Source: Mariniphaga sp.
GTDB lineage: Bacteria > Bacteroidota > Bacteroidia > Bacteroidales > Prolixibacteraceae
DNA length: 64,000 bases
NCBI GenBank assembly: GCA_024636975.1
Contig: JAGXGA010000014.1
Coordinates: 1-64,000, forward strand
Direction of reading: 5' to 3'
Position numbers and translations under genes: made by a program. This document shows positions 1,968 through 47,169 of this stretch, one piece after another (position 1 is the stretch's first letter; the number at the start of each line of letters is the position of its first letter). Under the pieces are notes generated by a model that ran no database searches, was not told where the DNA came from, and saw only the letters and a list, made by a program, of their open reading frames with translations.

Positions 1968-1996
1968 AAATATTGAATACAGAACATTGTTTCATT

Positions 1997-2022
1997 GCCT
2001 CTCCTTTCGGAGGGGCTTTTTT
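1997..2022 (+). terminator. Rho-independent terminator after the TlpA-like gene
   Basis: Arms GCCTCTCC and GGAGGGGC form an 8-bp stem (one G-T pair) around a TTTC loop and run directly into six Ts. It lies 29 bp after the stop codon. Its position inside the longest possible upstream extension of the EamA reading frame argues against that extension being translated. Confidence 0.85.
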
Positions 2023-2037
2023 ATTTCAGGGAATTGC

Positions 2038-2045
2038 TACATTTG
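2038..2045 (+). promoter_or_regulatory. Bacteroidota-type -7 box (TACATTTG) for the EamA gene
   Basis: A perfect match to TAnnTTTG, 11 bp upstream of the ATG at 2057 and just after the preceding terminator. No convincing -33 TTTG box is visible. Its placement supports 2057 as the start codon. Confidence 0.6.
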
Positions 2046-2056
2046 CGCCCTTAAAA

Positions 2057-2968
2057 ATGCAAAACTACATTGGAGAAATAGCAGGTTTGCTTACTGCCCT
2101 TTTCTGGACAGTTACCAGCATGGCATTTGAGTCGGCCGGGAAAAAGGTGGGGTCACTGGCCGTAAACCTCATCCGGCTGGTTATAGCCTTCTTTTTCATC
2201 GGGATATACAGCTGGCTGGCCCGCGGATTTTTTTTTCCGACTGATGCCACAGCCTACCAGTGGCAGTGGCTTGCCCTATCGGGTGTAGTGGGTTTTGTAA
2301 TCGGCGATTTACTGCTCTTCCAGGCATTTGTAGTTATCGGTGCACGTATCTCAATGCTTATGATGTCGCTGGCACCACCCTTTGCCGCTTTTGTGGGTTG
2401 GCTTATGCTTGGTGAGGTGCTTTCTCCAATGAACTGGTTAGGCATGGCAGTTACCATGACCGGCATCATCATCGTTATACTAAAGCGCGAAAAGTCGGAA
2501 CTGAATGGTTCCATCGTCAGGAAGCTGAAATCAAGTTATTCAGTACCGGGCATTCTGCTGGCACTGGGTGGTGCCATTGGTCAGGCTGCAGGACTGGTTC
2601 TGAGTAAAAAGGGAATGGGAAGTTATGATGCATTCTCCGCAGCCCAAATACGGGTGTTAACCGGCATTGCAGGTTTTTCTATATTGTTCATCTTTATGAA
2701 AAGATGGCCTCGTGTGTGGGCTGCACTGAAAAACCCGCCAGCCATGAGACGGATAACATTGGGTGCCTTTTTTGGCCCGTTTCTTGGCGTTTCGTTTTCA
2801 CTACTGGCTGTTCAGCATACCGAAACCGGCATCGCAGCCACCTTAATGGCCATTGTTCCGGTGCTGATCATTGCTCCGTCGGTAATTCTTTTCCACGAAA
2901 AAGTCAATGCAAAGGAAATAGTAGGTGCTGTGGTCACTGTAGCTGGCATAGCACTGTTCTTTCTTTAG
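2057..2968 (+). CDS. EamA-family (DMT superfamily) transporter
   Basis: A 303-residue integral membrane protein with about ten hydrophobic segments arranged as two EamA repeats: residues about 1-135 (GEIAGLLTALFWTVTS...) and about 160-300 (GILLALGGAIGQAAGLVL...). Each repeat ends in the typical motif of a G-E-x-ox2-P turn and a V/I-rich last helix (LGEVLSPMNWLGMAVTMTGI; FHEKVNAKEIVGAVVTVAGI). The family exports or imports metabolites, and the substrate cannot be read from sequence. I chose the ATG at 2057 because the upstream in-frame ATG at 1973 would translate through a terminator and a promoter box. It is a single gene, followed by the 124-bp palindromic element. Confidence 0.85.
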   Translation: MQNYIGEIAGLLTALFWTVTSMAFESAGKKVGSLAVNLIRLVIAFFFIGIYSWLARGFFFPTDATAYQWQWLALSGVVGFVIGDLLLFQAFVVIGARISMLMMSLAPPFAAFVGWLMLGEVLSPMNWLGMAVTMTGIIIVILKREKSELNGSIVRKLKSSYSVPGILLALGGAIGQAAGLVLSKKGMGSYDAFSAAQIRVLTGIAGFSILFIFMKRWPRVWAALKNPPAMRRITLGAFFGPFLGVSFSLLAVQHTETGIAATLMAIVPVLIIAPSVILFHEKVNAKEIVGAVVTVAGIALFFL

Positions 2969-3040
2969 GATCTTTACTTTTTATGTAATGGGAGGATATT
3001 ACTTCCTTCCTCTAAAGTACCTACCTTGTAATAATTATCT

Positions 3041-3164
3041 CCTTAGTAAATTCAGTTTAAACTCAGTATTAACTCATATATAACTCAGTGTAAATTCAAT
3101 TATAATTGAGTTTACATTGAGTTAATACTGAATTTGTATTGAGTTAACATTGAGTTTACACCGG
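3041..3164. repeat. 124-bp palindromic element built of 11-bp units, copy 1
   Basis: An imperfect palindrome between the EamA and nucleoside hydrolase genes. Five consecutive 11-bp units resembling TAAACTCAGTA make the left arm, and five units of the complementary type (for example TACATTGAGTT) make the right arm. The two meet at TCAATTATAATTGA near 3096-3109. The outer ends are CTCCTTAG on the left and ACACCGGAG on the right, and they also partly pair. The second copy at 45290-45413 is the same length in the opposite orientation. The RNA could fold into a hairpin of more than 100 nt. Equally, repeats spaced by one helical turn would present the same face of DNA to a protein. The rest of the 2969-3353 gap shows no gene. 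Confidence 0.85.
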
Positions 3165-3353
3165 AGAAGGTGTGTTTCTTTCAGCTTCCCAAACTGAATA
3201 AACTAATATTATTGCAATAGAAATAATTTACCTGCAGAAGAATATTTTTCCTATCTTCAATTAGTTAAGGCAAATTGCTGTACTCGATAAATGCTGAAGA
3301 GTTCAAATTGTGTAATATGGCTATATTAGTAACGAAAAAAGAAGACCATAACC

Positions 3354-4301
3354 ATGAAAAAATTAATATTCCATTCCAGCCTGTTGAAGAAAACCTTTAG
3401 TGTTGCGTTTTGCATAATGCTTTTATTACCTGGAGCAATTGCACAAAAAGCCAGAGTAATTATCGATGCCGATACAGGCAATGAGATCGATGATGTGCCG
3501 GCCATAGCACTTGCATTAATGAACAATAGAATTGATGTAGCAGGAGTTACAGCGGCACAATGGAATCGTTTTGAATTGTGCGGCAGGAAAACCATGATGG
3601 AAAGCTGGGAATTGAATAACAGGATTCTTAAATATCTCGACCGGAAAGATATTCCCAGTTTAAAAGGAGCTGAAGAGATGGTTGGTAAGCAATGGACAAT
3701 ACAACCCCCCCGGCAGAGTGAAGCCACCGACTTCATAATTAAAAGTGCGTTGGAGGCAGGACCAGACAATAAATTAAATATTATAATTACCGGTCCTGCA
3801 ACAAATGTTGCATCGGCTATTATGCTTAACCGTGTTATAGCAAAGAATATTGCTGTTTATTTTATCGGGACCGATTATATATTTGACAGGCAAGCCTTCA
3901 GCAAAAATGAGTTTAACGTGCGAAACGATTTGAATGCATTTGATGTATTGCTTGATACGAAAGACCTTGAGTTACATATTATGCCCATCAGTGTTTCCAA
4001 AAATCTTGTGTTTTCGAAAGAGGAAGTTTATACCCTTAAAGGTAAAAATGAACTTGGTAATTTAATAATAGAAAGATGGGAACAGGTTGCCGGTGACCTG
4101 GAGAGCTGGATTATGTGGGATGTGGCAATTATACAGGCTGTTCTTCATCCCGAATGGGCAATAGAGGTACTGCATCAAACACCTCCTGAAAATGTATCGC
4201 GAAAGATTCATCTTTACACTGACATTGATGCAGGAGAAATGAAAGAAAATTTTTGGAAAGTATTTGATGGAGTTAATAACAAATCTAAAGGTATGATTTG
4301 A
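3354..4301 (+). CDS. Secreted nucleoside hydrolase (IUNH family)
   Basis: A 315-residue protein with an N-terminal signal peptide (basic start, hydrophobic core about residues 15-27, cleavage after AIAQ). The mature part begins with the nucleoside-hydrolase Ca2+-binding motif, here DADTGNEIDD in place of the usual DxDxGxDD. Other family landmarks are ITGPATNVASAI (the GPLTN-like segment) and a late WDVAIIQAVLHP. The family cleaves the N-glycosidic bond of ribonucleosides to free base and ribose. Secretion suggests scavenging of nucleosides in the periplasm. The substitution N-E-I-D-D for the common D-D-A-D-A arrangement is seen in exported Bacteroidota homologues. It lies 170 bp before a GH9 gene on the same strand; co-transcription is possible but not shown. 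Confidence 0.82.
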   Translation: MKKLIFHSSLLKKTFSVAFCIMLLLPGAIAQKARVIIDADTGNEIDDVPAIALALMNNRIDVAGVTAAQWNRFELCGRKTMMESWELNNRILKYLDRKDIPSLKGAEEMVGKQWTIQPPRQSEATDFIIKSALEAGPDNKLNIIITGPATNVASAIMLNRVIAKNIAVYFIGTDYIFDRQAFSKNEFNVRNDLNAFDVLLDTKDLELHIMPISVSKNLVFSKEEVYTLKGKNELGNLIIERWEQVAGDLESWIMWDVAIIQAVLHPEWAIEVLHQTPPENVSRKIHLYTDIDAGEMKENFWKVFDGVNNKSKGMI

Positions 4302-9815: not shown

Positions 9816-9924
9816 TCCCTTTCTGACGGTAAAAAACACCCTATTTTCTTTTGGTACAGAATGTGATTAAAGTGTGTGTCGATTTTTGAAATAATGAATG
9901 TTTAATAACAAAACGAAAAAAACA

Positions 9925-10203
9925 ATGGCGGAACTAAAAGGTAAAATTCTGGCAGGAAAAATTCTGGTACAACCCCAGGAAGCCGAAGAAAAAACAGTAA
10001 GTGGAATAATCATTCCCGATTCAGCTAAAGAAAAACCACAGCAAGGAACAGTAGTTTTAGTCGGAGCAGATAAAAAAGAAGAACCCATGGAAATTAAAGT
10101 GGGTGATGTAGTAGTTTATGGGAAGTACTCAGGTACTGAATTACACATTGACGGAGTAGATTATATGCTCATGTCGCAAACCGACGTATTGTACATTGCT
10201 TAA
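9925..10203 (+). CDS. groES: Co-chaperonin GroES
   Basis: 92 residues from the ATG at 9925, which begins MAELKGKILAGKILVQPQE. It forms the heptameric lid of the GroEL chamber. The family features are the mobile-loop region (EEKTVSGIIIPDSAKEKPQQG), the roof-loop segment (GADKKEEPMEIKVGDVVVYGKYSG) and the C-terminal LMSQTDVLYIA. An upstream in-frame ATG at 9898 would add nine Asn/Lys-rich residues absent from the family, so 9925 is preferred. It is followed 26 bp later by groL. Confidence 0.97.
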   Translation: MAELKGKILAGKILVQPQEAEEKTVSGIIIPDSAKEKPQQGTVVLVGADKKEEPMEIKVGDVVVYGKYSGTELHIDGVDYMLMSQTDVLYIA

Positions 10204-10223
10204 TTTAAAATCAAAAAAAGTAA

Positions 10224-11870
<1,647 letters not shown>

Positions 11871-15471: not shown

Positions 15472-15979
<508 letters not shown>

Positions 15980-25380: not shown

Positions 25381-25475
25381 AGTTAGCTGTTAAATTGCAG
25401 TAAAGTTACAATAAATTTGTTTTACACTTTTTTAGGGCTATACATGCTCTTGTTTTTTACATAAAATTTAATAAA

Positions 25476-44597: not shown

Positions 44598-45227
44598 ATG
44601 AAGCAAATGTATAAAGTTTTTCTGAATGACCGGGTCATTAAAATTAGCTCCCGCGAGAATATAACATTTAATAAATCGGCGGAAATATTTAGCGATACCT
44701 GCACTGTTAAAGAAATCCGGGAATGGTTCAATGAATTTGAAACCGGCGCTGCTAAAGAGGTTGTTTTAATTCATGATAATCCGACGGAATTTTTCCGGCA
44801 ATTTCGGTTGGCATTTACAGTGGTTAGGGCAGCCGGTGGGGTAGTGGTTGCCGATGACAGGCTGCTGTTCATTTTCAGAAACGGGAAATGGGATCTGCCG
44901 AAGGGAAAGCTCGACGGGGATGAGTCTGATGAAGAGGCTGCACTGCGTGAAGTGGAGGAAGAGACCGGCATACCACCGGGGGGTATCGACTATCGGCTTC
45001 CATCAACCTATCACATATACAAATCACCTTATGCTAATACCGAAAACCAGTGGGTTTTTAAGGAAACGACCTGGTTCCAGATGAGTTGCAATGGTTTAAT
45101 TCCCGGGAAGCCACAACAGGAAGAAGGAATTACCCAGGTTAAATGGGTTACCCGGAGCGGACTGGAGGAGATTGTGCAGAATACCTACAAAAACCTGACT
45201 CAGATTATTGCCTTGTATCGTGAATAA
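44598..45227 (+). CDS. Nudix hydrolase with unusual N-terminal extension
   Basis: 209 residues from the ATG at 44598 (an ATG at 44607 is also possible). The Nudix box Gx5Ex7REUxEExGU is perfect at G103-I125 (key residues G103, E109, R117, E118, E121, E122, G124). The first 75 residues (MYKVFLNDRVIKIS...FNEFETGAAKEVVLIHD) form a separate small domain of unknown type seen in some Bacteroidota Nudix proteins. Substrate is unknown. It is divergent from pyrE with 20 bp between starts. Confidence 0.85.
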   Translation: MKQMYKVFLNDRVIKISSRENITFNKSAEIFSDTCTVKEIREWFNEFETGAAKEVVLIHDNPTEFFRQFRLAFTVVRAAGGVVVADDRLLFIFRNGKWDLPKGKLDGDESDEEAALREVEEETGIPPGGIDYRLPSTYHIYKSPYANTENQWVFKETTWFQMSCNGLIPGKPQQEEGITQVKWVTRSGLEEIVQNTYKNLTQIIALYRE

Positions 45228-45289
45228 AAAAAATGCTTACGGAACCATGTTAAGCATCTGCCTTTATTAATACTTAATATATACCTGGT

Positions 45290-45413
45290 CCGGTGTAAAC
45301 TCAATGTAAACTCAATATTAACTCAGTATAAACTCAATGTAAATTCAATTTTAATTGAGATTACATTGAGTTTATACTGAGTTAACGCTGAATTAATACT
45401 GAGTTTGGTATGG
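45290..45413. repeat. 124-bp palindromic element built of 11-bp units, copy 2
   Basis: Same architecture and length as copy 1, but in the opposite orientation: it begins CCGGTGTAAAC where copy 1 ends ACACCGG. Left units resemble TGTAAACTCAA (five in a row). Right units resemble TTTATACTGAG (five in a row). The centre is TCAATTTTAATTGA. Aligned end to end with copy 1 reversed, no gap is needed and about four-fifths of positions agree by eye. It starts 62 bp after the Nudix stop; no gene is seen in the remainder of the 45228-45594 gap. Confidence 0.85.
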
Positions 45414-45561
45414 TCCATGTAAGTGTTTCAGGAAGCCATGAGAATGTTACTTCGATTCCAATTCTATTTATACTTCATTGAACGTAATGGCAAACTTCTG
45501 ATTATTAAAAGCGCCGTATACTGAAAAACACATCAAAGCTTTAAACTCTGAACTTCTTTAT

Positions 45562-45594: not shown

Positions 45595-47169
45595 ATGTCG
45601 TTTCAGAAAGAGATAAACCGCCGGCGAACGTTTGGAATAGTTAGTCATCCCGATGCAGGAAAAACCACCCTCACCGAAAAGTTGTTGCTTTTTGGTGGAG
45701 CCATTCGGGTGGCTGGCGCTGTTAAAAGCAACAAGATAAAGAAAACAGCCACCTCCGACTTTATGGAGATTGAACGCCAGCGTGGAATTTCGGTAGCTAC
45801 TTCGGTTATGGGGTTCGAATACAACGGCTATAAGGTTAACATTCTTGACACGCCCGGTCACCAGGATTTCCAGGAGGATACCTTCCGGACACTGACGGCT
45901 GTCGACAGTGTTATTATTGTTATTGACGCCGCAAAAGGGGTTGAGCCGCAAACCGAGAAATTGATGAATGTATGCCGGATGCGCAAGACGCCGGTTATTG
46001 TTTTTATTAATAAAATGGACCGGCCTGCCCAGGATTCCTTTTCACTGCTCGACGAAATAGAGGATCAGTTAAAGATAAGGGTGCGCCCTTTGAGCTGGCC
46101 CATTAACAGCGGTCCCGATTTTAAGGGTGTTTACAGCATATACAACAGCAGCCTGAAGCTATTCGACCCAAGTATTCAGGACATTGAAAAAGGAATTGAT
46201 TTTGAAGACATCAACAATCCGGAACTGGAAAAGTACATTGGGGATGATGCCCAAACCCTGCGCGATGAGCTGGAACTGGTGGAGGGAGTTTATCATGAAT
46301 TCAACCGCGGGGATTACCTGAAAGGAAATCTGGCGCCGGTATTCTTTGGCAGTGCCCTTTATAATTTCGGAGTGCAGGAGCTGCTGCATGCATTCCTGGA
46401 AATAGCCCCAGCTCCTCAATCTTCATTTGCCGAAGAGCGGGAAGTGAAACCGGAGGAAGATAAGTTTTCAGGATTTGTCTTTAAGATTCACGCCAACATC
46501 GATCCCAATCACCGCAGCCGTATTGCTTTTGTAAAAATTTGTTCAGGCATGTTTGTGCGTAACAACATGTACAAACACATCCGTTCAGGAAAGACCATTC
46601 GTATTTCTAGTCCTACAGCATTTATGGCTTCACAAAAGGAGCTGGTGGAAGAAGCGTTTCCGGGCGATATAATTGGGGTTCCCGATAACGGCAGTTTTGT
46701 AATTGGCGATACAATAACCGAAGGGGAAGACATCAATTTCAAAGGGCTGCCCAGTTTTTCTCCGGAGCTGTTCCGCTATGTTGAGAATGCCGATCCTATG
46801 AAATCGAAACAGCTGAACAAGGGCATCGACCATCTGACCGATGAAGGAGTAGCCCAGCTTTTTACCAATCAGTTTAACGGGCGAAAGATTATGGGAACCG
46901 TTGGTCAGTTGCAGTTCGAGGTGATTCAGTTCAGGCTGGAGCATGAATATGCCGCTAAATGCCGGTTTGAGCCGCTGCAGATGTATAAAGCGTGCTGGAT
47001 TGAGTCGGATAACGCTAAAATGCTGATTGAGTTTAAAAAACGCAAGTACCAGAAAATGGCCAAAGACAAGCTGGGGCGTGATGTATTTATGGCCGATTCA
47101 CAATTCATCCTGCAAATGGCCCAGAATGAATTTAAGGACATCAAATTTCATTTTACTTCGGAGTTTTGA
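45595..47169 (+). CDS. prfC: Peptide chain release factor 3
   Basis: 524 residues. The GTPase removes RF1/RF2 from the ribosome after termination. G motifs: [14 protein letters not shown] (G1), the G2 region with [22 protein letters not shown] (G3), and NKMDRPAQD (G4). The RF3-specific middle ([18 protein letters not shown]) distinguishes it from EF-G. Domain II is at about 295-375. A full-length gene, convergent with the radical SAM gene (12-bp gap). Confidence 0.96.

What the first reader, a model, noticed from the sequence alone, without database searches (positions are those of the whole stretch)
3041..3164. 124-bp palindrome made of ten 11-bp units, five per arm
Seen: the left arm is a tandem of five 11-mers close to TAAACTCAGTA, the right arm five complementary 11-mers, so the element is at once a direct-repeat array and an inverted repeat. 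An 11-bp period is about one turn of DNA, so the ACTCA/TGAGT cores would all face one side of the helix. It could be an array for a DNA-binding protein, a large transcribed hairpin, or a non-autonomous mobile repeat. I do not recognise a named family.
Basis: partly seen in the sequence, partly recalled or inferred. Interest (0 to 1): 0.75.

Follow-up and report, generated by a model that had tools for sequence, protein, structure and literature searches.

The report
Evenly spaced 11-bp palindrome arrays
This palindrome is one of about a hundred long DNA sites, each built from 11-letter units, that are spread between genes along this bacterium's chromosome, mostly 20 to 50 thousand letters apart, with similarly built but mostly differently spelled sites in some relatives, which points to an undescribed way of marking or organising a bacterial chromosome or to an unusual self-spacing mobile DNA.

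Summary
The palindrome is real (dyad at 3102/3103; five 11-bp units per arm plus a terminal motif) and is not a two-copy curiosity. The genome carries about 67 copies of this class (A) and at least 39 sites of a second class (B; mostly pattern-based) sharing a GARTTWA unit core. All 60 class-A copies examined lie between genes. Sites are strongly over-dispersed: on 20 contigs, 67 neighbour gaps, minimum 13.5 kb (a degraded site; otherwise 18.4 kb), 39 of them 25-42 kb; random placement never gave a minimum above 6.1 kb in 20,000 trials. A and B keep similar distances from each other. Three other family genomes carry sites of the same architecture, largely with other spelling; on one complete chromosome 59 sites have a minimum gap of 29.1 kb. 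Arms do not covary (they are less alike than random arms), no target duplication exceeds permutation, copies look nearly like independent draws from a motif, and conservation fades outward in 11-bp steps. I read them as phased, cooperative protein-binding arrays spaced along the chromosome. A dispersing miniature element with target immunity is the main rival. The binding protein is unknown and no function was tested.

The parts
3031..3174 (.). Class-A phased palindrome, copy 1 (144-bp core; dyad between 3102 and 3103)
   Evidence: CM match G000:C33:3031-3174; detector; sequence
3105..3159 (+). Right (stronger) arm: five 11-bp units 3105-3115, 3116-3126, 3127-3137, 3138-3148, 3149-3159
3046..3100 (-). 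Left (weaker) arm: five 11-bp units 3046-3056, 3057-3067, 3068-3078, 3079-3089, 3090-3100
3160..3170 (+). Terminal (sixth) unit of the right arm (ACCGGAGAAGG)
   Evidence: terminal motif profile
3035..3045 (-). Terminal (sixth) unit of the left arm
3013..3192 (.). Full zone of above-background conservation (units 1-8 per arm) as deduced from 60 copies
45280..45423 (.). Class-A phased palindrome, copy 2 (dyad between 45351 and 45352; stronger arm on the left)
1973..2968 (+). EamA-type transporter gene ending upstream of copy 1
   Evidence: ORF; Pfam EamA E 2.3e-34
3354..4301 (+). Nucleoside hydrolase gene downstream of copy 1
   Evidence: ORF; Pfam IU_nuc_hydro E 2.5e-22
44607..45227 (+). NUDIX-domain gene upstream of copy 2
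   Evidence: Pfam NUDIX E 1.1e-15
45595..47169 (+). Peptide chain release factor 3 (prfC) downstream of copy 2

Best explanation
Each element is a DNA platform on which a sequence-specific protein assembles cooperatively, one protomer (or dimer) per 11-bp unit, so that the protomers line up on one face of the helix and spread symmetrically from the central dyad. About 106 such platforms, in two related sequence classes (A and B), are set along the chromosome, typically 20-50 kb apart, and act as distributed anchor points, for example for domain or loop formation or for positioning of the chromosome. Shown by computation: the architecture, copy number, intergenic placement (class A), even spacing, lack of arm covariation, and the same architecture in three more genomes. 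Inferred: that a protein binds, that it is cooperative, and the organising role. The protein is not identified.
For: Unit-wise conservation: in 43 of the 60 copies aligned, 45 of 144 columns are invariant and 19 are split between two bases; 24 vary more widely. Information falls outward per 11-bp unit: 17.3, 15.5, 13.1, 15.1, 15.1, 11.0, 3.5, 2.1, 0.55, 0.36 bits. Arm length changes by exactly 11 or 22 bp (14 of 120 arms). No arm covariation: 61 doubly changed cells versus 100.7 in shuffles, covariation score below all 500 shuffles; in 46 copies the two arms are less alike than random arms, 0.765 versus 0.793, 0 of 2000. All 60 fetched class-A copies intergenic, in every gene arrangement: 17, 15, 14 and 13 of the 59 with two flanking genes called. 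Spacing: 87 sites on 20 contigs, 67 gaps, min 13.5 kb, 39 in 25-42 kb versus null mean 13.4 and max 27, CV 0.43 versus 0.89; A-B gaps (n 32, median 35.2 kb) resemble A-A gaps (n 30, median 35.5 kb).
Against: No convincing site in 386 kb of congener G002: 0 at the first threshold, one weak call at a lower one, none with either profile; none in 100 kb of congener G003. So the system is dispensable or recent. Homologues of genes beside six G000 sites lie in the G002 stretch without a site. Positions are not clearly conserved between genera. No binding protein found. Random insertion with a 22-25 kb exclusion zone gives similar typical gaps. A degraded class-B site (C38:21.0 kb) sits 13.5 and 18.2 kb from its neighbours; in G013 a site of another class is 22.3 kb from its neighbour, in G061 two classes are 15.6 kb apart. 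Gaps up to 93 kb remain between sites and the last 100 kb of C38 is empty. Single arms vary more than column-independent data (sd 0.060, null at most 0.047).
Confidence: 0.5

Rival explanations
1. A miniature, non-autonomous mobile element whose ends are arrays of transposase-binding sites; new copies cannot land within about 20-25 kb of an old one because of transposition target immunity, which yields the even spacing.
For: Patchy occurrence and genome-specific sequence; absent beside homologous genes of a congener; saturated random insertion with a 22-25 kb exclusion zone gives mean gap 30-34 kb and 64-81% of gaps at 25-42 kb (observed 39 of 67). Target immunity over kilobases is documented (Mu: strongest around 5 kb, fading between 5 and 25 kb; further for Tn3 and Tn7; passages of PMC7350765).
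Against: No target duplication of 2-6 bp exceeds permutation of the right flanks (best matches 18, 7, 3, 3 and 1 of 60; 45, 47, 60, 8 and 60 of 60 permutations at least as high), and none of 8-9 bp is seen. Ends fade instead of stopping. Best pair of 46 copies is 90% identical and identities are near column-independent shuffles (sd 0.0294, null 0.0224-0.0297). No extra class-A or class-B site above 12 bits in 56 of the 60 class-A loci (about +/-4 kb; four loci with off-centre copies were left out of that check). Two different sequence classes keep apart. Saturated exclusion gives CV 0.22 and 0-3% of gaps above 50 kb at 22-25 kb, observed CV 0.43.
Confidence: 0.3
2. Strong DNA gyrase sites: phased arrays about 130 bp long that wrap gyrase, one per topological domain.
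For: The E. coli gyrase motif is 130 bp, symmetric, with two flanking regions of 10.75-bp GC periodicity (passages of PMC6379681), close in length, symmetry and period to these elements.
Against: Gyrase recognition is degenerate and has a central 36 bp outside the periodic regions; here the units run to the dyad and TGA..TT is nearly invariant in each unit. Gyrase is universal (general knowledge), yet sites are lacking in scanned stretches of congeners. A GC-phase comparison between classes was ambiguous because periodic palindromes have two dyads 5.5 bp apart.
Confidence: 0.08
3. REPIN/BIME-like repeats dispersed by a single-strand (RAYT-type) transposase, which leaves no target duplication.
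For: Intergenic, palindromic, about 100 copies, mutation-cloud-like variation, no target duplication.
Against: Far longer than REPINs and built of 11-bp units, evenly spaced; no GTAG-type head noticed by eye (REPIN features recalled). RAYT genes were not searched.
Confidence: 0.07
4. A transcribed hairpin (terminator, processing signal or regulatory RNA).
For: Folds strongly as a single strand; one terminator-like stem at 3157-3174 with a T-rich tail.
Against: Arm pairing is below shuffle expectation; found about equally between convergent, divergent and co-directional genes; no Rfam match at gathering score in the window.
Confidence: 0.03

Closest known systems
parC centromere of plasmid R1 (ParR sites)
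   Same: Ten repeats of 11 bp around a promoter, bound by a DNA-binding adaptor (a cited paper's title and a passage in PMC9426499; the 5+5 arrangement is recalled)
   Different: Direct repeats at one plasmid locus; here inverted arms and about a hundred chromosomal sites
stbDRs of plasmid R388 (StbA sites)
   Same: Two sets of five 9-bp repeats spaced by 2 bp, that is an 11-bp period; StbA acts on them in plasmid stability (passages of PMC3098194)
   Different: Direct repeats at one plasmid locus (plus short sets in other promoters); different sequence
DNA gyrase motif and strong gyrase sites
   Same: About 130 bp, symmetric, helically phased (PMC6379681 passages)
   Different: Degenerate, centre outside the periodic regions; here strict units that differ between genomes
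REPIN / BIME / MITE repeats
   Same: Dispersed intergenic palindromes
   Different: Not built of 11-bp units and not known to be evenly spread over a chromosome (general knowledge; PMC3116915 and PMC2817692 seen only as search listings with the start of the abstract)
matS/MatP, Noc and SlmA sites (recalled)
   Same: Dozens of dispersed chromosomal sites for an organising or occlusion protein
   Different: Short single sites; no phased arrays

Membership tests
ParR/parC or StbA/stbDR type centromere | Tandem direct repeats of about 11-bp period | tested here: inconclusive
   11-bp tandem units in each arm, but the arms are inverted
ParR/parC or StbA/stbDR type centromere | Located at the promoter of its par/stb operon | tested here: inconclusive
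   60 class-A copies are dispersed; the four genes flanking the two window copies are transporter, hydrolase, NUDIX and prfC. Flanking genes of the other copies were not annotated
DDE-transposon MITE | Target-site duplication | tested here: not met
   2-6 bp no better than permutation; 8-9 bp none
DDE-transposon MITE | Sharp ends | tested here: not met
   conservation fades over units 6-8
DDE-transposon MITE | Autonomous partner with the same ends | not tested
   No transposase search was made; in about 0.85 Mb of contiguous sequence the profiles showed only full sites and one degraded, one-armed class-B site
REPIN / RAYT system | RAYT (Y1) transposase in the genome | not tested
Strong gyrase site | Symmetric about 130 bp with periodic flanks and separate centre | tested here: inconclusive
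   length, symmetry and period similar, but units are continuous to the dyad
Intrinsic terminator / RNA element | Compensatory pairing and fixed orientation to genes | tested here: not met

The most novel reading that the evidence does not exclude
Some Prolixibacteraceae use a chromosome-wide ruler: about a hundred or more long, palindromic, 11-bp-phased nucleoprotein platforms about 30 kb apart, whose sequence is rewritten in concert from lineage to lineage together with an unknown cooperative binding protein, to organise or segregate the chromosome.
Probability: 0.4. Interest if true: 0.95.

Novelty: categorically new. Interest (0 to 1): 0.85.

Why it matters
Even spacing of a large, sequence-specific element along bacterial chromosomes, seen in three genomes (G000, G013, G061) with different spelling, has no counterpart that I know of or met in the ten literature searches made (four of these were aimed at comparison systems). 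If the sites organise the chromosome they give a directly testable marker of roughly 30-kb domains; if they are mobile they record target immunity written across a genome.

Tried and rejected
Exact-pattern scans of genome and viral contigs: 8 loci in 8 organisms and 0 viral; seven are short direct 11-mer runs with little or modest palindromy (one, L120, would pass the detector), one (L125) is the Prolixibacteraceae genome with true palindromes. Plasmids and phages: no match. Polarity: the stronger arm does not follow GC skew (25 of 59), gene orientation (28 and 32 of 59) or the neighbour's orientation (20 of 33). Shared neighbour genes: two of three well-formed G061 sites lie beside homologues (66% identity) of genes that flank G000 sites, but one is on the other side of the gene; the 11 G062 and G013 sites compared gave only distant matches (34-45% identity) within 2 kb, plus prfC at 1.9 kb in G013; I treat this as near chance, without a formal test. 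GC-phase comparison between classes abandoned as ambiguous. attC, CRISPR and tRNA-like readings dropped on form (no call made for them; the window Rfam scan was empty, and one ordinary tRNA lies at 15472).

Caveats on method: the two-arm classification is by maximum likelihood and always makes one arm better; the independent evidence for unlike arms is. The covariance-model search scored 150 of 4572 first-look candidates; BLAST of relatives scored at most 14 candidates per genome. Seven of the 67 class-A copies rest on the model match alone. Class-B counts come from a printed list of 100 of 105 pattern matches; only 7 of the 39 sites, those on C48 and C38, were read and seen to be palindromes. 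G013 and G061 counts come from one pattern each (100 of 103 matches printed for G013) and miss other classes; site lists for searches were copied by hand from the outputs. Gene calling for one search was a simple codon-score ORF caller of my own. Class-B sites were not tested for intergenic placement. The profile was built from copies that are themselves among the 60.

Full report
Observation. The palindrome at 3041-3164 is as described. The dyad lies between 3102 and 3103; outward from it each arm reads TA and then five 11-bp units of the form AYTGARTTWRY. A second copy is centred at 45351/45352. A sequence-blind detector that scores palindromy and 11-bp periodicity finds both copies in the window and nothing else at its first threshold; a weaker threshold adds one weak call at 25460. 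Shuffled sequence gave none in three shuffles and 200 kb of E. coli K-12 gave none.

Copies. BLAST, pattern and covariance-model searches of the window's own assembly (5.76 Mb, 67 contigs) show about 67 copies of this class A. I fetched 60 with flanks; all 60 match a profile built from some of them and all 60 pass the blind detector. All 60 lie outside the genes I called, in gaps of 175 to 1384 bp (59 measured, median 489), and in every gene arrangement: 17 and 13 co-directional, 15 divergent, 14 convergent.

Anatomy. Aligned arms show five conserved units, a sixth of another spelling (TCAGGMGAAGG) and two further weak ones; information per unit falls 17.3, 15.5, 13.1, 15.1, 15.1, 11.0, 3.5, 2.1, 0.55, 0.36 bits. 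In 14 of 120 arms one or two whole units are missing, never a fraction of one. In the alignment of 43 of the 60 copies, 45 of 144 columns are invariant, 19 are split between two bases and 24 vary more widely.

Not a hairpin under selection. Pairing between arms is worse than when arms are shuffled among copies: 82.3% of cells paired versus 84.1%, 61 doubly changed cells versus 100.7 +/- 8.1, covariation score below all 500 shuffles; the palindrome itself is not in doubt, since sliding one arm by 1-3 bp drops pairing to 25-42%. In 46 copies with five units in both arms, arms of one copy are less alike than arms of different copies (0.765 versus 0.793; 0 of 2000 random pairings as low). A single strand can nonetheless fold well (z -6.2). 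The simplest reading is selection on the units as double-stranded DNA, possibly with avoidance of a perfect palindrome.

Not an ordinary transposon family. Direct repeats of 2-6 bp between the flanks are no commoner at any pair of end offsets than when right flanks are permuted among copies (best 18, 7, 3, 3 and 1 of 60; 45, 47, 60, 8 and 60 of 60 permutations at least as high). The ends fade. The two most similar of 46 copies are 90% identical and the spread of pairwise identities is near that of column-shuffled data (sd 0.0294; null 0.0224-0.0297). Single arms do vary more than shuffled arms (sd 0.060, null mean 0.042), which I ascribe to strong and weak arms.

A second class. A blind scan of 400 kb of contig C48 found, besides seven class-A copies, four palindromes of a related class B (units like CGAATTTAATA, same GARTTWA core), lying in the larger gaps of class A. 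A pattern for B gives 105 matches against 0 for the reversed control, forming at least 39 sites; 7 of these were read and are palindromes, the other 32 rest on the pattern. Contig C38 (325 kb) has three A and three B sites plus one degraded B site at 21.0 kb. A profile built from the seven B sites, run on about 0.85 Mb of contiguous sequence, finds only that one more; its reversed-sequence control stays at 7.8 bits, against 44 for the degraded site and 27-41 for class-A copies. For the class-A profile the reversed control reaches 16.5 bits and the weakest class-A copy there scores 100.

Spacing. For 106 sites (67 A, 39 B) there are 68 neighbour gaps, median 35.2 kb, minimum 18.4 kb, maximum 93 kb. 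With the degraded site added, on the 20 contigs of known length with two or more sites, 67 gaps have minimum 13.5 kb, one below 18 kb (25.3 expected, at least 12 in each of 20,000 random sets), 39 between 25 and 42 kb (13.4 expected, at most 27), CV 0.43 (0.89 expected, lowest 0.60). A-B gaps are like A-A gaps and the two classes are interspersed at random (36 of 68 like neighbours, 36.1 expected). Against perfect regularity: gaps of 60-93 kb remain, the last 100 kb of C38 is empty, and random insertion with a 22-25 kb exclusion zone gives similar typical gaps, though less spread.

Relatives. The class-A sequence was found in none of 59 relatives by BLAST; its unit pattern occurs in one of 139 other family genomes, G062, and a mixed A/B pattern in 2 of 392 other genomes drawn from the order, one match each. 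The blind detector on parts of 15 relatives (1.09 Mb in all) gave 4 hits in G061 (66.6 kb, one of them weak), 4 in G013 (120 kb), one direct 11-bp array in G063 (40 kb), one doubtful hit in G002 (386 kb) and none in G001, G003, G005, G010, G012, G019, G023, G025, G031, G033 and G060, each of which but G003 (100 kb) was sampled for 60 kb or less. So absence is well supported only for the stretches of G002 and G003. On the complete 4.465-Mb chromosome of G013 one pattern gives 59 sites with a minimum gap of 29.1 kb; random placement gives 18 gaps below 28 kb on average and never a minimum as large in 20,000 sets; a site of another class there lies 22.3 kb from its neighbour. G061 gives 16 gaps, minimum 13.0 kb, P about 0.004, with contig lengths assumed. 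So the architecture and the spacing recur while the spelling largely changes, and close relatives may lack it.

Interpretation. Phasing, unit-wise conservation, variation by whole units and fading ends point to a protein that binds 11-bp units cooperatively from a central dyad. Plasmid centromeres show that such arrays exist: ten repeats in R1 parC and two sets of five 9-bp repeats spaced by two in R388 (passages of PMC9426499 and PMC3098194); those are direct, single-locus arrays. The gyrase motif has similar length, symmetry and period (PMC6379681 passages) but no such strict sequence. Even spacing, the distance kept between classes and recurrence argue for sites distributed along the chromosome, most simply for organising it. 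The patchy occurrence and genome-specific sequence argue that a dispersal mechanism exists, and target immunity would explain the spacing as well (PMC7350765 passages). I put the organising reading at 0.5 and the immune mobile element at 0.3; both could be true in turn. No binding protein, transposase partner or function was identified, and nothing was tested at the bench.

Literature. Ten searches of the open library, for dispersed or regularly spaced palindromes, 11-bp arrays, this family and the comparison systems, showed no description of such sites in their listings. This is limited to open-licence papers and to the terms used.

Noticed in passing
L251 (G063:C2) about 3850-4030: A direct array of more than ten 11-bp units (CATTCARTGGT), itself nearly palindromic per unit, in a relative; not a two-armed element.
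   Followed up: partly
L120, L121, L123, L124, L126 near the pattern match: Short direct 11-mer arrays resembling TGTAAATTCAG in Altarchaeum, Dolichospermum, Lachnospiraceae, Rubripirellula and Paenibacillus genomes; little palindromy except L120 (palindrome z 4.6, period z 8.5); perhaps unrelated minisatellites.
   Followed up: partly
L178 about 1000-1350 (G001, upstream of prfC): A direct array with a period of about 29 bp (TTCAAACTCTTCGAACAACGTCGAACCA-like) upstream of prfC in a congener, where G000 has copy 2.
   Followed up: no
L246 2819 (G061:C2): A second sequence class in G061 with inner AATTCGTAACA units and outer ATACCACTGTC units, 15.6 kb from a site of the other class.
   Followed up: partly
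window 9898-11870: Genes whose translations look like a chaperonin pair (groES/groEL, recognised by eye), and a tRNA-Ser(GGA) gene at 15472-15560.
   Followed up: no
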